Origin: Margaritifera margaritifera
Taxonomy: Eukaryota > Mollusca > Bivalvia > Unionida > Margaritiferidae
Assembly (NCBI GenBank): GCA_029931535.1
Contig: JAQPZY010001501.1
Span: 1,434,501 to 1,498,500, forward strand
DNA length: 64,000 bases
Direction of reading: 5' to 3'
Shown here piece by piece: positions 16,456 through 55,359 of this stretch; the first letter of the stretch is position 1, and every line of letters starts with the position of its first letter. Position numbers and translations under genes: made by a program. A model generated the notes under the pieces. It saw nothing but the letters and a program-made list of their open reading frames with translations, had not been told where the DNA came from and did no database searches.

Positions 16456-16811
16456 TAGCTATTGTTTGTGGTATTGTGAAAGCAGAGAATAAGCCTTATA
16501 CAGCTGTTGTTTGTGGTATTGTGAAAGCAGACCATAATCCTAATAAAGATATTGTTTGTGGTATTGTGAAAGTAGAGAATAAACCTAATAAAGCTATTGT
16601 TTGTGGTATTGTGAAAGCAGAGAATATGGCTAATAAAGCTATTGCTTGTGGTAGAGTAAAAGCAGAGAATAAGGCTAAAAAAGCTATTGCTTGTGGTTGT
16701 GTGGAAGTAGAGAACAAGCCAAATAAAGCTATTGCTTGTGGTATTGTGATAGCAGAGAATAAGCCTAATAAAGCTATTGCTGTGAAAGCAGAGAATAAGC
16801 CTAATAATCCG
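16456..16811. repeat. 48-bp minisatellite with an open coding-like frame
   Basis: Seven to eight imperfect copies of a 48-base unit (16 codons). On + it reads KAENKPNKAIVCGIV repeatedly through a 112-codon frame with few gaps; the last unit is shortened. On - it reads as hydrophobic FSAFTIPQTIALLGL. Most differences between units are substitutions in multiples that keep the frame. It lies inside the Polinton remnant. Whether it is decayed repeat protein or plain minisatellite cannot be decided here. Confidence 0.75.
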
Positions 16812-41575: not shown

Positions 41576-41580
41576 CACGG
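41576..41580. repeat. Left target-site duplication (CACGG)
   Basis: Five bases CACGG directly precede the left inverted repeat and recur directly after the right one at 54301-54305. Polintons are usually reported with 6-bp duplications; the sixth base differs here (A before the left copy, T after the right copy). Confidence 0.82.
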
Positions 41581-41700
41581 AGTAGTATCATTATGGAAAT
41601 TTAGGACTGAGCTTACTGATCTGGTCCAAGATTTCAATACCCCATGACTCTACCCTGGAATCACACGCGATTGTATTTTTGCGCACGATCCCTTGGTGAG
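41581..41700 (+). repeat. Left terminal inverted repeat
   Basis: Begins AGTAGTATCATTATGG, identical to the first 16 bases of the reverse complement of the right end. Further identical blocks are TTCAATACCCCATGACT, a block running through CACACGCGATTGTATTTTT, and CCCTTGGTGAG at the inner edge. Similarity stops after position 41700. TIRs of this type are used for protein-primed replication and integration in Polintons. Confidence 0.92.
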
Positions 41701-41978
41701 ACTCGCGCGATTGTAATCCTCTGGCGCCTTCAAGCGAAGTTAAGAGGTGCCCCAAAACACTGCTGTAGCTACAGGTCACTGTTATTATTGATCGCAACTA
41801 TACTGTATAAAATATATTCTGCAGAGATTATTTTCTTTGTGTAAGAATATAGCTAGCAGCAGATATTTTTATTTTGATCGCGGTTATATTCTACGGGGAG
41901 TGTTTTCTTTGTGTGAGAACATTTTATATTTCCTTGTACGTGAAAATTTATTTTATTAAAGAATTATCAAGGTATATA

Positions 41979-42057
<79 letters not shown>

Positions 42058-42225
42058 GTTACAACTTCACCGATTGCTGCGTATAGTATTTTGAAGTGAT
42101 TTATGAGCGTAGCTAATACGGGAATCACACTGCCTGAGAAATGGCATGTTTGTAACGTCACAGAAAAGATTAAATATTTATTTCGTCTAAGTGCGTCATA
42201 CAGATAAGTTAAAGAGACTCAAAAG
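41701..42225. other. Left arm of element, non-coding, with (AT)n expansion
   Basis: No supportable reading frame. It contains a later-expanded AT dinucleotide tract at about 41973-42054. The region next to the left TIR is where a Polinton integrase often lies; none of its motifs is visible on either strand. Confidence 0.6.
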
Positions 42226-42940
42226 ATGCTGTATGATTATTCAAATACGTATCTGGAGCATTTTGATAAATTAATTGATTTCGGAATTATCTTGGAAAAA
42301 GAACGACCTAAACTTGGCGATGTTTATAATAAAAACCAGAAAAGTCGTTGTATGATATTGTTCAAGGAAACGTTAAGTCGCTGACTGTAACCGAGTCATT
42401 AGTCGAAGATAGTGAATGTAGTGAATACGTCACCAGTGATAGTGAATGTAGTAATGAGAAAATCAATTAAAAAGATACTTTTCAAAATTGAAAAATAATA
42501 CGAAAATTTTTAGAACGAGGTAGAAGCTACACAGCTGGCCCAATGTGATAAATGTACCAGTGATATATTTGAGAATCTAGGAATGCAACCTATCGTTTAT
42601 ATGTATAAGTGGCACAAAGCGTTTGACTTTATTGGATACAAAAGTAAAAATAAGGTTTAACGAGTTGGTGGAAAATAAATAAAAATGTAACGGAATATTA
42701 TGGGTGATTTGGCCTGATCTCAGCTTGAAGGAAATTGTATCTGAGTTGGGACCTTGCCTATTTGGTTTGGATCAGGAAGATGAACCTGTTTATTTAGCAA
42801 AGGCTGATGTGAGATTAAAAATCACCTTCTTAGGTGGAAAAATGTATCGTACAATTTATGGCCGTCAAGTTGAGTACTATCCTCTGTATTATGAAGTGTT
42901 TACATTTATACCACAGTATACAAAGCAGGAAATAATTTAA
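42226..42940 (+). pseudogene. Unassigned left-arm coding remnant(s)
   Basis: Three open stretches lie in series in this part of the element. The first, 42226-42384, is a 52-codon frame beginning MLYDYSNTYLEHF and rich in charged residues. The second, 42514-42660, carries a Cys-x-x-Cys pair (QCDKCTSD) followed by aromatic residues. The third, 42704-42940, is a 78-codon frame with many Leu, Tyr and Phe and a motif RTIYGRQVEYYPLYYEV. They may be one broken gene or two to three small genes. I do not recognise any of them. None shows the catalytic or chromodomain-like motifs of Polinton integrase. Orientation and spacing agree with the downstream genes. Confidence 0.4.
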
Positions 42941-42983
42941 AAAAACGACAGATCGAAGCAACCAAAAATTCAATTAAGGACTA

Positions 42984-42985
<2 letters not shown>

Positions 42986-43057
<72 letters not shown>
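42986..43057. repeat. (CA)n-(AT)n microsatellite inside the element
   Basis: CA dinucleotides to about 43040, then AT dinucleotides. It lies just upstream of the cysteine-rich gene and was probably expanded after insertion. Confidence 0.95.
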
Positions 43058-43064
43058 AAGTTCA

Positions 43065-43384
43065 ATGGCATTGACACGCAATCAATGTAAAGGCATATGC
43101 CTTGGAAAACGTGAACTCTGCGGCAAAATATGTCATTACGAATACTGTAAATCACATTTGCTCGCGTTACGTGTTGCCTCATTGCTCGGCCATGCCTTAA
43201 ATGTGGTATCGGAGTAAAGTTGCGAGTATTATCGCGCGCGCCGGCAACGATAACGGAACCTATCATCGTGCAAAACACGCGACGACGTCAATTCCATTGT
43301 GGAAAAGATACAAAACTCAATAAAATAATAACCAGGATTGAAGCGATTGCAGTTTCTGATCCTGGTAAAGTAAAAATATTTTAA
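43065..43384 (+). pseudogene. Small cysteine-rich zinc-binding-type protein, one frameshift
   Basis: From the ATG at 43065 the frame reads MALTRNQCKGIC and then LCGKICHYEYCKSH, and stops at 43217. A second frame open to 43384 continues with PCLKCGIGVK and later FHCGKD. Pairs of Cys/His at these spacings look like a treble-clef or zinc-ribbon fold, and a small cysteine-rich protein would suit nucleic-acid binding. One frameshift at about 43170-43190 separates the halves; taken together the protein would be about 105 residues. It sits immediately upstream of the SAP-repeat gene and PolB, so a role in replication or early regulation is an inference. The family is not identified with certainty. 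Confidence 0.55.
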
Positions 43385-43424
43385 AAAATGATTAATGGAA
43401 TAAATAATTAGACAATGAGTTTTA

Positions 43425-43853
43425 ATGTATATCAACATGCCCACCATGAATGAGCTCAAACAATTTGCGCGAAGAATACCAAACGGTATGAGAAAGGCAG
43501 GTATACTTGTATTATTAGGACTTGAAGACAAGCCACAGCAGGTTGTAAAAATACCGAGAGGCGCAGGAAAAGCTGACGTACTTGCGTTATTGGGACTCGC
43601 TGTCGAACTTTGTCTGACTGTGATACAGCTTCGTGAAATGGCAGCACAGTATCATATTAAGATTCCTCCACGGGCCATGCGGGCTGATATTGCACCTGTG
43701 GTCGCTGATGAACAAGAGCGTCGCAGTATAGCACATACCATTGCCGAAGAGGCTGTTGTGTATGGTCGTCAAATGACTCTAGTCCCCGAGTTAAAGTTTC
43801 ACAAGCGCTCTCGCGATCTTCAAGATTACCGGGTGATTATCCCAAGCGTATAA
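43425..43853 (+). CDS. SAP-like repeat protein, possibly the N-terminus of PolB
   Basis: A 142-codon intact frame. I see three helix-rich modules of the SAP/HeH (DNA-binding) style: around residues 7-32 (MNELKQFARRIPNGMRKAG), 40-58 (KIPRGAGKADVLALL) and 66-91 (VIQLREMAAQYHIKIPP). Each has the Leu-rich helix, a Gly or Pro turn, then basic residues and a second Leu or Ala helix. SAP modules bind AT-rich DNA. The last residues overlap the start of the open PolB frame, which is already open from about 43781 in another frame. The two may therefore be a single SAP-PolB polypeptide split by a frameshift, or two adjacent genes. The start is the ATG at 43425; ATGs at 43437 and 43446 are equally possible. 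Confidence 0.6.
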   Translation: MYINMPTMNELKQFARRIPNGMRKAGILVLLGLEDKPQQVVKIPRGAGKADVLALLGLAVELCLTVIQLREMAAQYHIKIPPRAMRADIAPVVADEQERRSIAHTIAEEAVVYGRQMTLVPELKFHKRSRDLQDYRVIIPSV

Positions 43854-46800
43854 AGCTAAGCAGAGACGCTGTGAAACTTCTCTTCAAGATGCGTCCGGGA
43901 ATTGTATCAACATTACAGCACGTGGGGGAGACAGCGCTGCCGTCCGGATTCAAGGTTGACATTGTTCTCAATGAGGAATTTACCATGCATGGCAATGTAA
44001 TTAAAGACGGCTTTGCATCATCTATAACATCACAGCCATGGTTTCATAATGGTGCCTGTGTAATCTTGAACCATAAAGATACCGAGGTCATCAACGATGA
44101 AATTGTTAAAAGTTACGCAAAGATTTGTGAGCAGTTTGAAAAATACTCCAGAGGCGGTTCAGGATGGATGTTTGGAATTTCAGCTTCATATTTCCCAGTA
44201 CAAACCTTTTCGCGGTTGAGTTACATTCCAACGCCAGCGTGTATTCCACCGCTGTCAGTAATCAATGTGAAAATGGTGACAACCAGTGTTTTGAATGGGG
44301 GCTCTTGTCAGTGCTGCATCCTGTAAGTGATCACACAAACCAACCTCGAAAATATAAACAATACATGGGCGAACTTAAGTTTGTTAACATTTAATTTCCT
44401 GTACAAGTTACTGACATCAGTAAGTTTGAGCGACTCAACTCTGACATCGCTGTTAATATGTTTGTTTGGAATAAAGGCCTGCAGCCGATTCGACTATCGA
44501 CGGTGAGAAGCGCGTGGTGCAACATTGATTTATTATTATTAAGCAACATGGACGAGTCAGTGGTGCGGTATCATTTTGTGTGGATAAAAGATCTTCCCTG
44601 CATGGTATATCGGCACAACAAGCACAAGGGTGACGCTGCATGTATGTATTTAGCACGCAACAGTTGCTCGCGGACCTTGACATTTACTGCAGTGGAATTA
44701 GCGAAAAGTCGCAGGGTATAATCACGCCAGAGCCTGGCAAAAACGTTTTGAAAGTCACCGCGGTACAACGAAAAATGAAAGTCTCGTATATTATCTACGC
44801 GGACTTGGAATGCTTGAACATTCCCGTGGATGTTCACTCAAATACAACACAAGTTGCTGAACAAGTCGCATGCGGATTTTGTTTCGTTGTTGTTAAGGAC
44901 TTGATTGAGATGTGTATTAAATCGCTCGAACTTACAGCGAAATGGATCCGACAACAGTTCTTCTCGCCCGCAGACATGATTATGACCAACGATAATATTC
45001 AAAATTTCTGCTGCCACTTATTGCTAGATCTGTGATGGCACTTTTAGTTCAACCAATAAAAAAGTTTATGACCACTGCCACATCCCGTGTGCTTACAGAG
45101 GAGCCACACACAGCGCATGCAATATACAGCTGCGAATATATCCAAACAAAATAAGAATTCCGGTTTTGCTTCATAACCTGCGCGGGTATGATGGTCACTT
45201 GATCATGCAAGCAATCGCAACAGCATCGAATGCACCAATAAGCATCATCCCGAACACGGTTGAAAAATATATGACGTTTAGGATAGGAAAACTGCAATTC
45301 ATCGATTCGATGCAGTTTCTCAATTCCAGCCTGGACATACTCATCAACTACCTTGCAGCAAATGGTGACTACCGTTTTAAAATCACTCGTCGATACAGTG
45401 AGTGTGAATCTGAAACGTTCAAGTTACTCACCCGCAAAGGAATCTATCCCTACTAGTACATGAGCGACTGGGAAAAGTTTACTGAAACTCAGTTACCGCC
45501 AATGGAGGCATTCCATTTGTCGTTGTCTCGCGAAGGTATTTCCGCCAGCGACTACACACATGCAAACAATGTTTGGTCTGTGTTTGGTTGTCAAAATCTC
45601 GGTGACTATCACGACATGTATTTGCCCACGGATGTGTCACTGCTCGCGGATAGTCATTTCAAGACGTTTAGTGATATAGCCATGCACGAGTACAAGCTCG
45701 ATCCCGCGCACTACTTTTTGTCACCAGGAATGACTTGGCATTGTTGTATAAAACCAAGGTCGAGTTAGAGTTGCTCCCAGACATTGACCAGCATCTGTTT
45801 GTTGAACGTGGAATCCGTGGCGGGATTTCCATGGCGAGTCATCGCTACGCTTGCGCGAACAATCCGCTCTTGGACAGATATGACCCTGCCCTCTCGAACA
45901 GTTACATCATGTACTTGTATGATGGGCGATGATGCAACCAATGCCCGAGGTGAGTTTCAGGGGATATGATCCCGCGCTCGTGGACATACACAGACATGTA
46001 CATGAGTACAGCAACAGCGAATATGGATACTTTTATGAAGTTGGTCAAGAATACCCGGACGAGCTGCACAACACACACAACGATTATCCACTGGTCCCGG
46101 AAGCGTTAGTGTTACCCCGCGAATGGTTGTCACCGTACCAGTGTGAAATCGTGGATGATTCCGGACGTAAGTTTACCGAATGTACTAAGCTTGTCTGAAA
46201 TATTCTGACTAAGAGCAACTATGTAGTCCACGTACGAAACCTGCAGTTGTTTCTGCGGCTGGGTATGCGTGTGTCACAGATCTATCTGGTGCTCGGGTTT
46301 CGCCAACGTGCGTGGATGGCTCCATACATCCAAATGAATACCAACCTGCGTACGGCCACCACAAATGAGTTTGAAAAGGATTTCCTTAAACTCATGAAAA
46401 ATCCATGGACAAAATATGAAAGCGAATCCGCGTGGACCTTGTGCGCGACAGTGAGCAAGACAAACTCAACCGATTGATTGCGGAACCGGCATTTGAGTCA
46501 CGCAAAATCTTTGATGGTGCGCTCGTTGCCGTACATGGCAAGAATGCTAAACTGAAGTTGGCAAAACCCATCCACGTTGACGCGTCTGTGCTGAACTTGT
46601 CAAAGCTGTTCATGTATAAATTCTTTTAAGATAAGATAAAGCCGCGATACGGTGATAATATTAAGATGTTATATACAGACATGGACTCGTTGTTAATGCA
46701 TATAACCACCAGCGATGTACATGCGGACATGGTTGAACCAAGTCTGAAAAATGAATTTGATACCAAGAATTTATCAGCGAGACCACGCTCTGTAAGCAAT

Positions 46801-47195
46801 GAAAATAAAACAAGTGGTTGCTAAGTTCAAAGATGAGTGCGCGGACAAGCCCATAAAAGAATATGTGGGCTTTGTAAAAAGATGTATTCGATTGTGGTTC
46901 CGGAAAGAACATCATAAAGGCTAAAGGAGTCCCACGTGTGGTTGTGCGTAAGGATATCAAACATAATATGTATGTGGAGTGCTTACTCGAGCGACGCGAA
47001 TTCGCACACATAGCCAATCTCATGCCGTCAAAGAAACATCACATAGGTGTGTATCGTTGCATCAATGTGAGTTTGTCTCCCTGGCTTTCACTGATAGAAC
47101 CAGAGGTGAGACGGCTTTGCCTTCCGCTCACGAACGTAAACTTCTTTGCTCCACATCGGACACAAGTTCCAGCGATTGCGGCTTTGTTGTGAGGT
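43802..47195 (+). pseudogene. polB: Protein-primed family B DNA polymerase (Polinton type), broken
   Basis: Replicates the linear element by protein priming. Similarity to DNA_pol_B_2 runs through all three frames. In order: an N-terminal region ending in SRGGSGWMFG and YIPTPACIP; CFEWGLLSVLHP; the exonuclease motif YADLECL (about 44794); HNLRGYDGHLI (about 45168) and FIDSMQFLNSSLD; KGIYPY followed by a premature TAG; LGDYHDMYLPTDV; VERGIRGGIS; SPYQCEIV; LGMRVSQIYLVLGF; EKDFLKLM; and the catalytic motif C, LYTDMDSLL (46669-46695). The C-terminal KGVPRVVVRKDIKHNMYVEC (from about 46920) matches the usual tail. Many frameshifts and stops are present. At about 45915-45930 the stretch that should carry the motif A aspartate is missing, and motif B near 46400 is scrambled. 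The gene is dead. The exact 3' end is uncertain (47100-47240). Confidence 0.92.
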
Positions 47196-47290
47196 GTTTC
47201 CACCCTCGTTGGATTTGCAGTACGAAATTTCACGCGACATAGCACACAATATGAAGGCATGATTGAGTTACACAACAATTGATATTTAAC

Positions 47291-47907
47291 ATGGCATCAC
47301 GAAAAAGGAAAAAAATCTTACTTTACCGTCATTAACTTTTCTGCCAGACAAAACCCAGACCACCCAAGCACGGTGACATGTCACCAAACTCAGTTCGCGC
47401 GTTGATTATTGGCCCGACTGGATCCGGGAAAACCCAACTGTTGTTAAATCTAATCATGCGATGGATACCATGGAATCGGCTGTACGCGATTGCACCATCC
47501 GCAGACGATCAACTGTGTTATGATATGCTCAAGGATTTTATAGAAGCGCTTGCGTCGTCGAGAAGAAAAGCTTCCACGTCCACCACTGAGTTCTTATCCA
47601 CAATCGATGAATCTCTCGCGATTCATGACCTTGACGATGACCTACGACGATGTTATGCTTGAACACCAAGACAACCCGGCGAAAATGTTTTCCCGTGGCC
47701 GACATAAAAACAGATTTGATTTATGTGACACAACGAAACGCGCACGTACCTAAAGTGATCCAGGACAATTGTAACATGTTGACGATATTTCTTGATGTGT
47801 TTCGGAATATATTTGCGGAGGTTACCCAGGACCCGTATGGTTTTCTCACAATTGATTTAAGTGGTGGGCCGCGCAAGTACCGCGCGGATCTGGACGAAAC
47901 GATTTAA
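47291..47907 (+). pseudogene. DNA-packaging ATPase, FtsK/HerA type, frameshifted
   Basis: Pumps the genome into the capsid in Polintons, adintoviruses and virophages. The likely start is the ATG at 47291 (MASRKRKK), with an early in-frame TAA at 47333. Walker A GPTGSGKTQLLLNL lies at 47411-47452. A Walker B-type TYDDVMLEHQD follows at about 47637-47669 in another frame, then FSRGRHKN. The third frame continues with VPKVIQDNCNML and DPYGFLTIDLSGG, typical of the family's C-terminal half. About 205 codons in total is close to the usual length. At least two frameshifts plus one stop inactivate it. It lies between PolB and the virion genes. Confidence 0.88.
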
Positions 47908-48365
47908 ACGACTATGATAAATATACATTGCCAAAACATGCCAGTGATATCATAGCAGAGTATGCTGACCGACGCCGTAAAGATGTCTGCAAACACCGGG
48001 AACTGATTCGTAATGTTATAGCCGTCCGCAAATATGTCAAAGATATGTTACAGTCGCGACAATCCGCACAGGAAGACCTCAGAGCAGGGGGTTTTGAACA
48101 AACGTTTGCACTGCTGATCAAACCAACAAAAGAGATTGTAGCCAAGACCGCGGATACCGCGGAAACGGTGAAGAAAGTCGCGGAAACCATCACAGCGATG
48201 ACTGGAACAGAAAGAGAACCTGGTCCGATCAGGCGTGCGCCATTACAATCAGCACAAATTCAAAAAAGGTTAGATGACATGCAAGAGGATATGGAAGAGG
48301 CACTTGAGAATCTTCCACAAGAACCGCCACCCGAGTACCAATCAAAGTTGGAAACAAAAGTTTAA
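47907..48365 (+). CDS. Coiled-coil, charged protein of unknown function
   Basis: A frame of about 145 codons open from just past the ATPase stop (ATGs at 47913 and 47938 in other frames; the first in-frame ATG is at 47928... reading from LPKHASDIIAEYADRRRK). It is very rich in Arg, Lys, Glu and Ala in heptad-like order (RRRKDVCKHRELIRNVI; DMQEDMEEALENL), implying long alpha-helical coiled coils. No catalytic motif. The frame closes at 48365, but helical text with the same character continues in frame for about 15 codons beyond the stop, so the native protein may have been longer. Its position between ATPase and penton suggests a virion or assembly role; that is inference only. Confidence 0.55.
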   Translation, partial: NDYDKYTLPKHASDIIAEYADRRRKDVCKHRELIRNVIAVRKYVKDMLQSRQSAQEDLRAGGFEQTFALLIKPTKEIVAKTADTAETVKKVAETITAMTGTEREPGPIRRAPLQSAQIQKRLDDMQEDMEEALENLPQEPPPEYQSKLETKV

Positions 48366-48396
48366 AAACTTAATCAACAAGCACGGCAGATGATCT

Positions 48397-48937
48397 TTGA
48401 CTCTCACTAATTCCAAAAACTTAAACAATTATATTTGGAGTCTGAACTATCCGCGGATTCTCGCCCGAGTTACCCCAACGATAATAGGCACGGATGGTAT
48501 TCAAGGAGTGAACTGGAGTTGGATTGAATTTGATAAGATTGTTACACTCTATAGAAACGGAGAAGAGATCACGTCATACTAGGATAAGTTTATTAATACA
48601 CACAAACAATTCTTTGAAAAAATATGTGGGGTTGGTTCTGTGGAGGAGTATCTATCTCGAAAAGTTGATCTGCCTTCCGCGGAAGAATATTACTCCCCAT
48701 CAGGCTCAAATGCGTGTCTGTAGACCAACAACAGATAAATGTTCTCGTGAATCGGTTGGAAACACTCGTGGAATCAGTTCGCGCGGCAACAACGCCCCAT
48801 AAGTCATCAATGAGGCCACGTCGATTTGACAGCGATTGCTTAAAAAACGACATCATGGACCCGGGACGTTTCGCTTATTAATACAAGAACTCATTGAAGA
48901 CATCGATGATGTATATAACACCGATGATGACTACTGA
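48397..48937 (+). pseudogene. Unassigned element protein upstream of penton
   Basis: Open segments follow one another in different frames: IIGTDGIQGVNWSWIEFDKI with LYRNGEEITSY (to 48582), VGSVEEYLSRKVDLPSAEEY (about 48628-48690), a segment RLETLVESVRAATTPHKSS (about 48755-48810), and the acidic tail LIEDIDDVYNTDDDY ending at the TGA at 48935-48937. A single protein of about 170 residues with at least three breaks is the simplest reading. I do not recognise the family. The acidic tail overlaps the start of the penton-like gene by 14 bases, a compact viral-style overlap. Confidence 0.5.
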
Positions 48938-49774
48938 GGAGACACTTCGTGTTAAGACGCTTCGCATTTTACGTGAAATCAATTCTCCGATGCAGCGTGT
49001 CATTGTAAATACAACCCCGAGCGTTACCTCGATGATCACGGTCTCGTCGACGAAGCCAGAATTTCATGTGGTTTTCTCTACACCAATTAATGCTGGGGAA
49101 GGTAGCGCACTCGAAATAGCACTAGCGTCGTTGAGGGTTTCTTACAGTTGGCCGAATATCCTATTGATACCGTTTGTGCGCTTTCCCGCAATAACTCGTT
49201 TGCGTTTTCGTCGGAAGGTGGTCAAAAAGGTGCCTGGAACGTTATTGGACTTCCCTCTGGCGCGTACGACATTGATTCAGTCAATGAAGAAATCTGACAG
49301 GATTTTCTTGGTAACTGGCAAAAACTCTAAAATCTATATACACGAACACGAGCATATACTCAGCTCTGCCATCTCGATCGAATTTCCACAGTACGCTGTT
49401 GACATCGCACAGTCATCGTTAAGAACAGTTCTCGGTTGACCAGAAGATATTAATGAGATTCCCGCAGATGAACAAATCTTACCCGCAGGTCCTGGAGGGT
49501 CTGGATACCATATCGTGCCAGACATTGTTAAAATCACTACCACGATGCACCTTAATCTGACTGGTGACACTATCAGTGCTTCCGCTAGAATAACCTCTCA
49601 GGATTTCATATTGATGGGTTCTACCCGAATTTGCCCCCAGGTACTTTGCTTTCGATTACTCCCCGGTTCACGCAGCTTTGTTTCACTGTTGTGGATCAAG
49701 ACGGGCACATGTCGGATCTTCGCGGGGAGAACTTGACTATACGATTGTACATTAGAGATCGACCTGATATTTAA
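48924..49774 (+). pseudogene. Penton-like minor capsid protein, frameshifted
   Basis: Forms the fivefold vertices of the icosahedral capsid in Polinton-type viruses. The start is the ATG pair at 48924/48927 (MMTTEETLRVKTLRI). The jelly-roll core begins with FHVVFSTPINAGEGSALEI and SYSWPNI. This pattern, VxFSxPI..G...EIALxS..xxYSWxNI, is typical of the family. The next frame reads NSFAFSSEGGQKGAW and LPSGAYDIDSVNEEI. SLRTVLG closes the middle at about 49437, and the C-terminal part reads GFYPNLPPGTLLSITP and DQDGHMSDLRGENLTIRLYI to the TAA at 49772. About 280 codons. At least three frameshifts and several stops show it is dead. Confidence 0.8.
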
Positions 49775-49829
49775 ATAAAATGACAGTCGTACGTGCACTT
49801 GTGTTGTCAAAGCGAGAAAACCCGTTTAC

Positions 49830-50045
49830 ATGACATCTTACGAAACTAGCCTTGGCAATGTTGTCCAGGGATTGTTTACAGGAGCTTCAAAGTTTGTAAC
49901 GGCCCTGAGCTCGCGCGCTGCACCGATCGCTAAACAAGTTGCAATCCGAGTCGTTGACAGCATCAAAAAAGTTGAAAACCTGGGCACCATCACAGGCGGT
50001 TGCGCTTCCACTTCCATCGACATCAACAATGCCAGACCAGGTTAG
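49830..50045 (+). CDS. Small hydrophobic/basic protein, minor virion protein candidate
   Basis: A 71-codon frame beginning MTSYETSLGNVVQGLF. An amphipathic stretch GASKFVTALSSRAAPIAK is followed by VVDSIKKVENLG. Size, position just upstream of the major capsid gene and composition are like the pVI-type minor proteins of adenoviruses and Polintons, but sequence similarity is not demonstrable by eye. A short frame at 49780 (MTVVRALVLSKRE) ends in the ATGA that starts this gene. Confidence 0.45.
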   Translation: MTSYETSLGNVVQGLFTGASKFVTALSSRAAPIAKQVAIRVVDSIKKVENLGTITGGCASTSIDINNARPG

Positions 50046-50129
50046 TAAAATCATCAATGAAGCCACCCAACAACGTATATCTGATTAGCGGACGGGACCT
50101 AGACGGCAAAAAAGGTATCAGACGAAACC

Positions 50130-51390
50130 GATAATGTATAAACGATGGCAAAAAATTCAAAGATACAGCCGATCCCGCGTTCGACATTGACGCGCCTATG
50201 ATAGTAGATCGAAGCAAAAGAGATTTTCAGTATTATTCGTACCCAGTTAGGGACTTCAAGCCATTAAAATTGAATTCCAGGTGCACGACATGTCTAGATT
50301 TTTTCTTCCGTATGAGGCTTTCTTGGAAATTGTGGGAAAACTTGTACTCACCAACAACGGTAACGATCACGCCGTTTATACCAATATTAGATTTGTCAAC
50401 AACGGCATCATGGCGTTGTTCGACGGAAAGGAGATGGAAGCAATTCTCGACAACGTTGATATTGCCACGACGATTATCGGACTTGCCATATACAGCTAAG
50501 ATTATGCGAAATCCTCCGGCCCGTCTATGTTGTTTTACAAGGATTCATCCAATAATGCAGAGGATAATATGCATATGCATAGGCGACCTAAACTACACAG
50601 CAACACTGCTATTGATGCAGATGTGGAAACTGTACTCATTAATACCAACCAAACGTTTGAACTTGGATTTTACAGTGTCGACAACAACTTCATTTAGGTT
50701 TTCGTGAGCGATTCCTCTCAATCACATATTCGGGTTTTGCAGAAATGTTCGCAGGTTATTTTGGAGCCAAACGCACAGCCAAATTAACCGTAAGGGCACC
50801 GTCAAACGATGCAATTTGGCGTGCTGGTGGTGTTACTAATGGCAAAGTTGAGTTTGTTGTTGTATATGGGGCCTGGAGACACGTCAACGCTGTCATTTCT
50901 CGCGGTCAACACAGGCTCAACGACAATTTATGTAAATGGACAATTTACATGGCAAATAAGTACCCAATATGGTCTCAGCGCACCAAAATACGTGTTCGTG
51001 GCGTTTCAAAAATTAAATCGGGCTGACAGTCAAGAGCATAGTGCGATGATATTTGACCTGGTAGAAGTGTCTGAAGTTTCCCTGCGGTTAAACCGCCACC
51101 TGGAACCCTCTGAAGAAATTTTGCTTGACTTCACAAACAATCATGTTGAACGTCTGCAGATTTCCTAGCGAGACTTGACTTATTTGTACCCGATTTATTA
51201 CTTTTCATTGGAACACCTGGAGCTGTTTATACCGTCCGTGGTCGACATGTACTTTCATGCACGTGTTAATACGGCTGTTGAACACGGTGTCCCCCTTACA
51301 AATGCATTGCAGCGATCCTCTCCGACAAGACTGTTGTTGGAGAGCGCAGATGGCCGAATAAGGGTCATTGACGCGCCTGTGGAAAACTAA
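50130..51390 (+). pseudogene. Major capsid protein, double jelly-roll (hexon-like), broken
   Basis: Main shell protein of Polinton-type virions. N-terminal part: DPAFDIDAPMIVDRSKRDF and QYYSYPVRDF (50165-50260). The first jelly roll continues in the next frame: FFLPYEAFLEIVGKLVL, VNNGIMALFDGKEMEAILDN and DIATTIIGLAIYS, then SSGPSMLFYKDSSNN. This order, LP..xLEI.GKL, then NNGIM.LF, then ATT..GL, then LFYKD, is the family signature. The second jelly roll is represented by YVFVAFQKLNR, FDLVEVSEVSLRLN and, after a stop at 51166, LYPIYYF and DAPVEN to 51390. About 415 codons, near the expected size. Several stops and at least three frameshifts are present; 50500-50810 is the most damaged part. Confidence 0.8.
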
Positions 51391-51420
51391 TAAGTTTTTT
51401 AAAACAAGTAATTAAACCTG

Positions 51421-51890
51421 TTGCATTTTCAAAAAATAATATCATATCACGAAGTTAAAGTTGGCCTTAGCCCAAAGCAGCTTGCAAAAAAAAAAAAAGA
51501 ACCCAATGCGAATGATTGCGGGTTCACATTGAAACTTTCTCTGGAAAGGTTAACTGGAATTATCCCAGTGTGGCTAATGCAAACACAGCTTGATCAGCTT
51601 AATGCAGCCAAACAAAAGAACACCTCGGTGACATTAAATTTATCCAAGTCAGAGGTGACGCAATTGCAAAAAACGGTGGAATATTTCCATTTCTCGCGGC
51701 CATTCCAGCGTTGTTAGCGGATGCGGCTCCCGCGGTTGCAAAAGCGGCTGCGTTCGGGGCCATCTGAACTGCACCTGGACTGGCTTTGAAAAAGGCGGTT
51801 GGAGGCGGAGCCTCTTGCAGACGAATAAAAAAACGAAAAGGCCTTCGACTACACGGGACGACACGCAGAATACCCTCAGGCAAAGGTTAA
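51421..51890 (+). pseudogene. pX-like basic/hydrophobic minor capsid protein, one frameshift, one stop
   Basis: Begins (TTG at 51421, or a lost upstream ATG) with a Lys-rich segment VGLSPKQLAKKKKE. The middle LERLTGIIPVW, then MQTQLDQLNAAKQKN and LSKSEVTQLQK, shows the paired 'LTxxQ(L/I)xxLxxAxxxxxxVxLxLSKxxV' repeat seen in Polinton proteins of this class. After a frameshift at about 51672 comes a glycine- and alanine-rich hydrophobic run, FPFLAAIPALLADAAPAVAK, an in-frame TGA at about 51766, and a basic tail KKAVGGGASCRRIKKRKG ending at the TAA at 51888. This layout (basic N-terminus, membrane-active helix, basic tail) fits an adenovirus pX/pVI-like virion protein. Confidence 0.72.
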
Positions 51891-51892
51891 CC

Positions 51893-52275
51893 AATCTTGA
51901 CTTACTCGCGATGACAAAGTCAGTTAAGCATTTCGGACGTGTTTGTATGTGAAATGAATTTCGTCAATGATCCACCGCACGCGGAAAACCGGCATTGTTA
52001 ACCTGGATTTTAGAACAGGAGCTGGAACTCATTAGGTAGCATACGTGGTAACGCCTCAACATCTTTTGTGTTTTGACTCGTACGGCTTGCACCAAGTGTT
52101 GTTGTTGATTATTTAACCCGGGGCGCTAGCTCTCGATGACTACAGTTGTGTTTTTTCGACGCTGTCGTTGCAAACTCGCTTGGACTGCCCCATATGTGGA
52201 CATTTTGTTGTTAAAGTACTGCATGCACTCGAGCGTTCACCAACACCACAAGCGCTTGTTAATTTTACATTGTGA
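51893..52275 (+). pseudogene. Adenain-like cysteine protease (peptidase C5/Ulp1 fold), broken
   Basis: Processes capsid proteins during maturation. Visible landmarks: HFGRVCM near 51930; MNFVNDPPHAENRH in a second frame; then GIVNLDFRTGAGTH, which contains the catalytic His in the family's GTH context; FDSYGLHQVL with the catalytic Asp region (about 52072); and DCPICGHFVVKVLHALE with the nucleophilic Cys in CGHF (about 52195). His, Asp and Cys codons are all still present. Defects: two early frameshifts, a TAG directly after GTH where adenain-type enzymes have Trp, and a TAA at about 52112. Length of about 125 codons is short to normal for Polinton proteases. Confidence 0.85.
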
Positions 52276-52304
52276 CTTAGAAAGTACACTTAATAGTATA
52301 CGAA

Positions 52305-52689
52305 ATGTCTATTGACATTTATTGACGCGAATTCGTGGCAACTCGACGCGGCGCTAATGTGGATCTGAGCAGGTTTACCACCTAAGTGGATTTGATTGAG
52401 TTTACCAGCCGGGTTGTTGTTTACATCGACCCAGGCGAGCTTGTGATTTTCCAAGATCAAACCGGAAAACTTAAAACGTCTAACGTAGACATCAACGACG
52501 TTGTTTTGAACCGCGTGGCGCCGTAGAAAAAAAAACCTGGCTAAAATCAATGAAATCGGGGGAATAAGAGTCGCCGGCGTGTCGGTCGCCTTTACCAAAG
52601 ACTATATCGATACTGCTAATGCTAATATGAAACAATACGTGGATGTAAAGGTCGCAGAGGTGCCCTCACCACCACGCATAGTAACTTAA
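52305..52689 (+). pseudogene. Unassigned element protein following the protease
   Basis: ATG at 52305 (MSIDIY), an early TGA, then a long open stretch including NVDLSRFTT, VDLIEFTSRVVVYIDPGEL and DINDVVLNRVAP. After a shift at the poly-A run at about 52527 a second frame continues with LAKINEIGGIRVAG, FTKDYIDTANANMKQYVDV and a stop at 52687. About 128 codons. Alternating beta-type hydrophobic pattern, no Cys, no catalytic motif. I do not recognise the family; a virion or fibre protein is possible from its position in the virion block. Confidence 0.5.
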
Positions 52690-52756
52690 TGTAGCCAAAT
52701 TCAAGAAATATTAATCTGCGAAGTAAAGAAAGAAACTGATGTCCTAACCTTAGCAA

Positions 52757-53017
52757 ATGTCTGAAAATGGCTTTGACAGACCTAAACGTCACATTTTAAA
52801 GGTGCGTGAGTCCGTATCATACTTGTTTATCATAACCGGAACTAAAGGTGAGTGGGCTAAAATAGGAATGTTGATAAATGACCAGCAGCATCTTGGTTTT
52901 TTCCACTAATATCAAATAGCAACAAAGGGCACTGTTGTTTATGAATTTTTCACATATGCAGTATCAACATCAGAAGTCGTCAGAGATGAAAAAGTTCGAA
53001 GGACTCAACATCTGTAG
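52757..53017 (+). pseudogene. Unassigned element protein, one in-frame stop
   Basis: ATG at 52757, 86 codons with a single TAA at 52907-52909. The frame reads MSENGFDRPKRHILKVRES, then SYLFIITGTKGEWAKIGM, and after the stop YQIATKGTVVYEF, YAVSTSEVVRDEKVRR. The 'YLFII ... KIG' pattern is faintly like the start of GIY-YIG/T5orf172 domains, but the catalytic Arg and Glu cannot be placed, so I leave it unassigned. All three codon positions behave as in a decaying coding frame rather than random AT-rich sequence. Confidence 0.4.
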
Positions 53018-53076
53018 AGAAGAGTATTTAACCGTCCTTGGCGTTTGTGTTTAAGATTTATCATTACATATACGCG

Positions 53077-53749
53077 ATGGATTCTGAACGTTGTGACGAT
53101 GTTGCGGAATTTGCGGACGGGGTGTTGGATAAGCTAACAAGGGATGCTAACATCGATGTCGATTTTGTTCCACTTATCTGCTTCAGAGTTGTATTGCCAG
53201 GCCCTCGTATACGTTGAAATACAATCTAGGGCAAGATAGAAATTGACCGTTCTGACCACCCTAAGTGCTACTACCAACTAGAGGCCAGCTTCGGGTCATA
53301 GCATTAGCACGTGAAAAGGTCCGGCAAAAAAAAAGACGTTATCGTCAGGCGTGAAATCAACCAAGACTGTTTCTACGACGATGAAGTGAACTTCACAGCC
53401 GAATCCACCCGAATCCACCCCGGTTACATTCCTTATCCATTATGTTAAACCAACATTGATTTAACTAAGAAAAGAAAGATCTCGACTGTTATTCAACAAG
53501 GACGCACCTGTCCGAGTAACAGTTCTTGGACGAAAACGATCGTTAGAAGCACAAAACAGAGGCGTAATCGCCGTGTTTCTACATGAACGTAGTGCCAAAC
53601 CACAGGAACGCACAATCACCGGAGACTTAAATATTCCCCCGGAAGATATTTTCTATGATTGCATGCTTGGTTGGAAGTGCGTGCACGTGTTGCGGCTAAA
53701 CGAGGCCAGCCTGTTAAGCAATGATGACAATATTAAGAGAAGACTATGA
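53077..53749 (+). pseudogene. Unassigned element protein, several stops and one frameshift
   Basis: ATG at 53077: MDSERCDDVAEFADGVLD, then DFVPLICFRVVLPGPRIR. After stops it continues in frame with KIEIDRSDHPKCYYQLEASF, KDVIVRREINQDCFYDDEV and RIHPGYIPYP. A shift at about 53460 leads into a second frame open for 95 codons (53465-53749) with RVTVLGRKRSLEAQNRG, VIAVFLHERSAKPQER and NIPPEDIFYDCMLGW. A single protein of about 220 residues is the simplest reading. It is not recognised. Its TGA overlaps the ATG of the next gene (ATGA at 53746-53749). Confidence 0.45.
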
Positions 53750-54143
53750 TAAACACTCAAAACTACCAACGCGAGAAAATAATCGAAGCGGAACAACAGC
53801 TGCGAGATGAAATCACAAAAAAACTTTTTACTCATGAAATACAAACGCGTGAGTCTGGTTGTAGATGCTGTTTATGGACTCGCCACGGCAACAACTACTA
53901 GCCTTGGTGTTGCTGGAATTGTGACCACGGCAACCATCATAGGTACACCAAACGGAATTGTTGTCGGAGCTATATCAGTGGCAACCGGTGCCTCGGGTGG
54001 TGTTGGAAAAATAATTTCGATACGATTACATTCGCGAATAACTTGAAACGGAAAACCACCGACGTCTCCTAGCACAGATACGAAACCGGGGAGTTAGCGA
54101 CCCAAAACAGGCAGTGGATTTAGAGGCAGTGAAAATCGAGTAA
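53746..54143 (+). pseudogene. Hydrophobic membrane protein of Polinton type, frameshifted
   Basis: Starts at the ATG at 53746 with a charged helix, YQREKIIEAEQQLRDEIT. A frameshift at the A/T run at about 53822 leads to KYKRVSLVVDAVYGLATA, then SLGVAGIVTTATIIGT and VVGAISVATGASGGVGKIIS, one or two glycine-rich transmembrane segments. A second shift near 54040 gives a charged tail, RRLLAQIRNRGVSDPKQAV, ending at 54143. Small proteins of this layout (KYKR, Gly/Ser/Ala-rich membrane segments, charged tail) recur in Polinton-like elements. A fragment of the same type is present on the minus strand at 19.2-19.6 kb, also with an 'ASLGIAGI' core. Confidence 0.6.
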
Positions 54144-54177
54144 ATGTTTATTGTAGCAGTGTACAGAGGGACCTCGG

Positions 54178-54300
54178 CTCACCAAGGGCTGGCGCGTAAA
54201 AAAAATACAATCGCGTGTGATTCGAGGGTAAAGTCATGGGGTATTGAAGTCTTTGACCCAGATCAGTAAGCTCGGTCTAAAATCCCATAATGATACTACT
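54178..54300 (-). repeat. Right terminal inverted repeat
   Basis: Reverse complement matches 41581-41700 with scattered substitutions and small indels. The outer 16 bases are identical. The inner edge, CTCACCAAGGG, is the mirror of CCCTTGGTGAG in the left repeat. Confidence 0.92.
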
Positions 54301-54305
54301 CACGG
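54301..54305. repeat. Right target-site duplication (CACGG)
   Basis: Identical to the five bases before the left end of the element. The match sits exactly at the outer edge of both inverted repeats, which supports a genuine integration event rather than a chance boundary. Confidence 0.82.
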
Positions 54306-55139: not shown

Positions 55140-55359
55140 TACCGTATGTGCTCGCGTATAAACTTAATCCAAATGCAAACAGCATAGACCCTGATCTGCC
55201 GTCGCATAATGCGCCGGCAGATCAGGGTCGATGTTGTTTTTTCTACTGATTAGTCCTTACAAACTGCATAGACCCAGATCTGCTGGAGTAGTATGCGCCA
55301 TCAGATCTGGGTCTATGCAGTTTGCAGTTGGTATCGAGTTATACGCGAGTATAACGGTA
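55140..55359. mobile_element. Twin-hairpin MITE, copy 2
   Basis: 220 bp beginning TACCGTATGTGCTCGCGTAT and ending ATACGCGAGTATAACGGTA. Internal stem-loop 1: GACCCTGATCTGCCG / CGGCAGATCAGGGTC; stem-loop 2: CATAGACCCAGATCTG / CAGATCTGGGTCTATG. Collinear with copy 1 over its length. It lies 0.8 kb beyond the right end of the Polinton element. Confidence 0.75.

What the first reader, a model, noticed from the sequence alone, without database searches (positions are those of the whole stretch)
41581..54300. Full-length, intact-ended 12.7-kb Polinton/adintovirus-like provirus
Seen directly: matching terminal inverted repeats, a flanking 5-bp duplication and, between them, PolB, packaging ATPase, penton-like, double-jelly-roll capsid, pX-like and adenain-like protease genes in one orientation. 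Known: this gene set defines virion-forming Polintons and adintoviruses. Inferred: it integrated as a unit and has since decayed by point changes. The gene order and the extra unassigned genes may define a distinct lineage.
Basis: partly seen in the sequence, partly recalled or inferred. Interest (0 to 1): 0.9.

Follow-up and report, generated by a model that had tools for sequence, protein, structure and literature searches.

The report
Decayed Polinton copy without its integrase
This is one worn-out copy of a large family of virus-like Polinton elements in an animal genome; its ends are intact, but its genes are broken and the gene that pastes such elements into DNA is missing.

Summary
The observation largely holds. 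Window 41581-54300 has ~120-bp inverted repeats (AGTAGT...ACTACT) and an exact 5-bp CACGG duplication. PolB and a double-jelly-roll capsid fragment are supported by searches; ATPase, penton, pX and protease rest on weak hits, motifs and conservation in relatives.

The interpretation needs three corrections. (1) Not full length: 17 of 19 related loci hold a reverse-strand integrase here; this copy lacks it, with a sharp break at 47080/47089 that none of 40 other listed matches spans. (2) So decay is not by point changes alone. (3) Not rare: a PolB piece gave 8673 loose candidates and a capsid piece 3183; 150 scored in each, all matching.

The family has Maverick-type ends but 5-bp duplications (exact in 3 of 12 paired copies; 6-bp in 0 of 12; control 0 of 132), and a gene order unlike vertebrate Mavericks.

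More interesting than this fossil: 31 of 150 scored capsid matches lie in uninterrupted frames of at least 400 codons; eight sampled are 86-99% identical, suggesting recent activity.

The parts
41576..41580 (.). left 5-bp target duplication CACGG
41581..41700 (+). left terminal inverted repeat, begins AGTAGT
   Evidence: BLAST 87% to right TIR
42208..42937 (+). left-end ORF pieces of unknown function (42208-42381 and 42683-42937), both matched in sister copies
43419..47080 (+). broken PolB gene with SAP-like N-terminal repeats (by eye); open only in pieces separated by frameshifts and stops
   Evidence: Pfam DNA_pol_B_2 E 0.014 and Endonuclease_7 E 0.0029 on 45028-45456; PHROG DNA polymerase E 5.4e-4
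47080..47089 (.). deletion junction: the reverse-strand integrase present in most sister copies is missing here (net 1.2-1.6 kb against four sisters)
47336..47904 (+). packaging-ATPase-like gene with P-loop GPTGSGKT, frameshifted
47856..48362 (+). 169-codon uninterrupted ORF of unknown function, matched in sister copies
   Evidence: low-confidence helical model
48394..48878 (+). small ORFs of unknown function; only 48669-48878 is matched in sister copies
48882..49771 (+). penton (minor capsid)-like gene, frameshifted; assignment by eye
   Evidence: no Pfam or PHROG hit for the window pieces
49779..50042 (+). pX-like small gene (assignment by eye)
50251..51387 (+). double-jelly-roll major capsid protein gene, frameshifted
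   Evidence: PF21738 E 1.9e-5 on 50794-51165
51412..51887 (+). conserved gene with Gly/Ala-rich basic C-terminal part, pX/pVI-like by eye
51890..52272 (+). adenain-like protease remnant; motif clearer in sister copies, by eye
   Evidence: no Pfam hit
52386..52906 (+). fibre-like gene remnant (by eye; one sister copy has a chance-level T7 tail-fibre hit, E 0.13)
53032..53214 (+). ORF of unknown function, matched in sister copies
53465..53746 (+). ORF of unknown function, matched in sister copies
53783..54043 (+). ORF with hydrophobic Gly-rich stretch, unknown function, matched in sister copies
54178..54300 (-). right terminal inverted repeat, ends ACTACT
54301..54305 (.). right 5-bp target duplication CACGG

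Best explanation
The stretch is an old insertion of a Polinton/Maverick-family element, the endogenous form of a protein-primed, capsid-encoding DNA virus. The family's elements encode PolB to copy linear DNA from the TIR ends, a reverse-strand rve integrase to insert it with a 5-bp duplication, and a packaging and capsid module (functions inferred from the known families). This copy was inserted as a unit (shown: matching ends plus exact duplication). Its genes then broke, and the integrase was lost at one sharp junction (shown: missing relative to sisters; inferred: one deletion, most likely after insertion, since none of the 40 other listed matches spans the junction). It can no longer make most of its proteins in one piece. 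Whether its ends can still be moved by enzymes of sister copies is untested.
For: TIR and duplication. PolB. Capsid family. Same gene order in the parts held of eight sampled copies. Below-cut-off integrase rve hits in two sisters, E 0.0017 and 0.0087. Integrase by tblastn in 17 of 19 sister loci at that place and none in the window: the only match under E 0.1 is an antisense stretch of PolB. Sharp breakpoint. None of the 40 other listed matches to the junction region spans it. Codon-position divergence of about 0.23/0.11/0.35 from seven sister loci suggests that the lineages diverged as working genes.
Against: ATPase and rve hits lie below Pfam cut-offs, the capsid hit slightly so. Penton, pX and protease have no profile hit. 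No tree against named Polintons and adintoviruses was made. The junction search scored 40 of 2014 candidates only. Two of 19 sister loci, and one of eight sampled copies, also lack a detected integrase, so its loss is not unusual in the family.
Confidence: 0.93

Rival explanations
1. A variant on timing only: the integrase was lost before insertion, and enzymes of a sister copy pasted the element in.
For: Intact ends with target duplication and no integrase gene. TIR-bounded shorter copies exist (about 3.0, 5.2 and 7.5 kb), one of them with an exact 5-bp duplication.
Against: None of the 40 other listed matches shares the junction. A later deletion needs no extra step.
Confidence: 0.25
2. One reading: a full-length provirus with a complete gene set, decayed by point changes only.
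For: Intact ends and several virion genes are recognisable.
Against: Integrase missing relative to sisters. The element spans 12.7 kb, against 15-20 kb given for Polintons (passage of PMC4028283).
Confidence: 0.03
3. A Polinton-like virus (PLV) integration, a group that mostly lacks the rve integrase by nature.
For: No integrase here; several PLVs carry PolB (passages of PMC4642659).
Against: Sister copies with the same kind of ends and gene order carry the integrase. The TIR motif is that of vertebrate Mavericks (passages of PMC8097293).
Confidence: 0.03
4. A host-domesticated viral gene cluster, kept for one of its genes.
For: One 169-codon ORF is uninterrupted.
Against: PolB and capsid are broken by frameshifts and stops. 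Selection on this copy itself was not tested.
Confidence: 0.01

Closest known systems
Vertebrate Mavericks/Polintons (PMC8097293, passages read)
   Same: PolB, integrase (in sisters), ATPase-like gene, double-jelly-roll capsid; termini (AGT)2//(ACT)2; most copies are degraded fossils
   Different: 5-bp instead of 6-bp duplications. The sisters' integrase lies alone on the reverse strand between PolB and ATPase, whereas vertebrate elements have two opposed modules. More PolB and capsid matches than the copy numbers shown for vertebrates. This copy lacks the integrase.
Adintoviruses (PMC11071296, passages read)
   Same: PolB, adenovirus-like virion gene set, rve integrase in sister copies
   Different: OTU domain of PolB and hexon similarity were not tested; no chromodomain was found in the sister integrase pieces scanned; this copy has no integrase
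Polinton-like viruses (PMC4642659, passages read; IMG/VR contig L005)
   Same: PolB homologous to that of contig IMGVR_UViG_3300007522_001028 (E 7e-94)
   Different: The ORFs of that contig that I take by eye for capsid and penton show no meaningful match to the window, its ATPase-like ORF only E 0.036; sister copies here have the rve integrase

Membership tests
Polinton/Maverick | protein-primed PolB | tested here: met
   tblastn E 7e-94 with a viral-contig PolB; pieces only, the gene is broken; the protein-primed type is inferred from the family
Polinton/Maverick | rve integrase (called universal in passages of PMC4642659) | tested here: not met
   absent from this copy; present in 17 of 19 sister loci. 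The copy is filed as a deletion derivative, its family as Polinton.
Polinton/Maverick | packaging ATPase | tested here: inconclusive
   P-loop and weak below-cut-off hits; matched in sisters
Polinton/Maverick | double-jelly-roll major capsid protein | tested here: met
   PF21738 E 1.9e-5, slightly under the curated cut-off; sister piece E 5.9e-4, also under it
Polinton/Maverick | minor capsid (penton) protein | tested here: inconclusive
   no convincing Pfam or PHROG hit; by eye and position
Polinton/Maverick | adenain-type protease | tested here: inconclusive
   catalytic-like motifs in sisters by eye; no Pfam hit
Polinton/Maverick | TIRs with (AGT)2//(ACT)2 ends | tested here: met
   motif from passages of PMC8097293
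Polinton/Maverick (vertebrate) | 6-bp target duplication | tested here: not met
   exact 5 bp in 3 of 12 pairs, exact 6 bp in 0 of 12; exact 5 bp in 0 of 132 mismatched pairs
Adintovirus | integrase with chromodomain | tested here: not met
   no integrase in this copy; Pfam found no chromodomain in the three sister integrase pieces scanned
Adintovirus | PolB with N-terminal OTU domain, hexon found by BLASTp | not tested
   the one protein-database query tried was not sent by the tool, and no named reference proteins were compared

The most novel reading that the evidence does not exclude
This animal carries a very large Polinton population with 5-bp target duplications and its own gene order. 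It includes a recently mobile subfamily in which many copies keep an uninterrupted capsid gene under purifying selection, so virion-forming Polintons may still be active in this animal.
Probability: 0.5. Interest if true: 0.65.

Novelty: new member of a known kind. Interest (0 to 1): 0.4.

Why it matters
The single copy is an ordinary genomic fossil. It led to a genome with thousands of candidate Polinton gene matches, a 5-bp duplication habit unlike that of vertebrate Mavericks, and a seemingly young subfamily with open capsid frames. If transcripts or packaged DNA were seen from that subfamily, it would bear on the open question of whether animal Polintons still form virions.

Tried and rejected
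Viral-contig scans with single window pieces found no relative. A degenerate PolB-motif scan gave four contigs, of which one matched the window's PolB; two follow-up scans returned that same contig. PDB sequence searches gave nothing relevant. PHROGs gave only weak hits. Two single-sequence structure predictions were of low confidence (mean pLDDT 47.7 and 59.7) and were not searched further. No tRNA, and no Rfam match at gathering scores, in the window. Host identity: a haemocyanin-family search did not complete; a cephalopod-like host is inference from genome size and microsatellites only. Integrase copy number in the genome did not complete. The idea that the integrase was never part of this family was rejected. 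A 6-bp duplication was tested and not found; but 9 of the 12 pairs show no exact 5-bp duplication either, so older copies are uninformative. Dropped before that count: the C38 pair, whose right TIR lacks about 50 outer bases, and C121, whose other end was not in the stretch fetched. At some ends the outermost one or two TIR bases were placed by extrapolation. Pairs were taken as one copy because they are close and in opposite orientation. The empty allele was not sought. Papers PMC4028283, PMC4642659, PMC8097293, PMC2836005, PMC11071296, PMC11071308, PMC10294476, PMC12220107 and PMC8967140 were seen as passages only; other papers as listings only.
Full report
OBSERVATION. The element's ends are real. 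A gapped alignment pairs window 41581-41700 with the reverse complement of 54178-54300. The 119 aligned sites differ at 11, K2P 0.099. Outside both ends stands CACGG. G+C is 0.29-0.37 in the 2-kb blocks outside, 0.38 at 42-44 kb and 0.43-0.45 from 44 to 54 kb. The element holds two dinucleotide microsatellites, at 41973-42054 and 42986-43041.

GENES. PolB: a 1313-aa PolB ORF on IMG/VR contig 3300007522_001028 (L005) matches 44027-46896 in seven pieces that change frame, the best group at E 7e-94. Major capsid: piece 50794-51165 hits the double-jelly-roll family PF21738, E 1.9e-5, slightly under the cut-off. ATPase: P-loop piece with only weak family hits. Penton-like, pX-like, protease-like and fibre-like genes are named by eye (recalled patterns). 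Pieces of each match sister copies by tblastn, so they are shared genes, but no library confirmed the names. PolB, ATPase, penton and capsid are open only in pieces.

COPIES. The window lies in a 2.45-Gb assembly of 1696 contigs. The left TIR gave 40 scored matches of 175 candidates, 38 of them outside this element; a sister TIR gave 40 scored of 720. A PolB piece gave 8673 candidates; 150 were scored, all with E at most 1e-48, the window's own among them. A capsid piece gave 3183 candidates; 150 were scored, all with E at most 1.6e-25, the window's own among them. Candidates are a loose first look, so true copy numbers are not known; the tool says that counts of scored matches are lower bounds.

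THE MISSING INTEGRASE. Stretches of eight copies were fetched. Five carry a reverse-strand integrase between PolB and ATPase (C539, C802, C19, C1526, C542), one has a remnant (C60), one lacks it with different break points (C1301), and in one no PolB match continues to that place (C169). Two of three integrase pieces scanned hit Pfam rve, E 0.0017 and 0.0087, both under the cut-off. In the window the only match to these pieces under E 0.1 lies antisense in PolB, where the sister genes overlap. Sister DNA aligns up to window 47079-47084. The four sisters that align on both sides resume at 47089-47171 after a further 1.3-1.6 kb, a net 1.2-1.6 kb more than the window has; the break is sharp. A search with 46880-47340 listed 41 matches. 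Of the 40 that are not the window's own, two stop by query base 205 and 38 start at 210 or later, so none spans the junction (40 of 2014 candidates were scored). Of 19 sister loci from that search, 17 hold integrase by tblastn at 1e-4; two (L057, L066) do not within the 1.5-kb flanks held, and one of the 17 (L053, C19) had been sampled before.

TARGET DUPLICATIONS. Twelve copies with both ends in hand were compared. Exact 5-bp duplications: 3 of 12 (window, C1567, C289); C542 matches 4 of 5. Exact 6-bp: 0 of 12. Exact 4-bp: 1 of 12, with 1 of 132 in mismatched pairs. Control for 5 bp: 0 of 132 mismatched pairs. One pair (C38) was dropped because one TIR is cut short. Vertebrate Mavericks have 6-bp duplications and (AGT)2//(ACT)2 ends (passages of PMC8097293); the window has the same end motif with a 5-bp duplication. 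From memory only, 5-6 bp has been given for Mavericks before, so the length may not be new.

HOW THE COPIES EVOLVED. At the PolB piece, seven of the nine sister loci compared differ from the window by 0.17-0.27, 0.09-0.12 and 0.29-0.42 at codon positions 1, 2 and 3. Two more loci (L016, L023) lie on the other strand, were aligned only in short stretches and are left out. The pattern suggests that most divergence arose while the genes worked. The window copy's own decay came on top.

A YOUNG SUBFAMILY. In one search, by my count of the listing, 31 of 150 scored capsid matches lie in an open frame of at least 400 residues with no stop inside, many near 484; they are 50-56% identical to the window's capsid piece. 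Of these, 240-base stretches of eight, picked among the longer frames, were compared: 28 pairs, identity 0.858-0.992, median 0.925; of 470 pairwise differences 153, 66 and 251 fall at codon positions 1, 2 and 3 (sums by hand; pairs are not independent). Intact frames of other genes were not examined, and flanks were not compared, so segmental duplication is not excluded. For comparison, the most intact Mavericks given for a vertebrate genome is 38 (passage of PMC8097293).

KNOWN OR NEW. Mavericks are reported across all analysed mollusc genomes (passage of PMC10294476). If the host is a mollusc, which is only inferred, the family as such is expected. Searches for Mavericks/Polintons with octopus, cephalopod or mollusc listed, by title and start of abstract, no paper on a large active population in cephalopods; PMC8967140, on cephalopod repeats, holds neither name in its main text. 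The library holds open-licence papers only, and two of my searches of this kind timed out.

VERDICT. A good observation of an ordinary kind: a decayed, integrase-deleted Polinton copy. Its family may be worth a specialist's time for the duplication length, the gene order and the seemingly young subfamily.

Noticed in passing
own genome, capsid matches: 31 of 150 scored capsid matches lie in uninterrupted frames of 400 codons or more; eight sampled are 86-99% identical, with 251 of 470 pairwise differences at third codon positions.
   Followed up: partly
own genome C1158, C289, C257: TIR-bounded copies of about 3.0, 5.2 and 7.5 kb, apparently internally deleted; the one on C289 has an exact 5-bp duplication, the other two do not.
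   Followed up: partly
L044 2845-5783: Retrotransposon-like gag/RT open frames (by eye) nested inside a sister Polinton copy on C542.
   Followed up: no
own genome C1157 4022287-4043832: Four PolB matches spaced at multiples of about 5.3 kb, suggesting a tandemly duplicated Polinton fragment.
   Followed up: no
window 55151-55349: 89-base inverted repeat, 78% complementary with a 21-base loop, right of the element; perhaps a small foldback element.
   Followed up: no
window 16457-16779: Tandem array of a 45-base unit, 7.2 copies, open in one frame.
   Followed up: no
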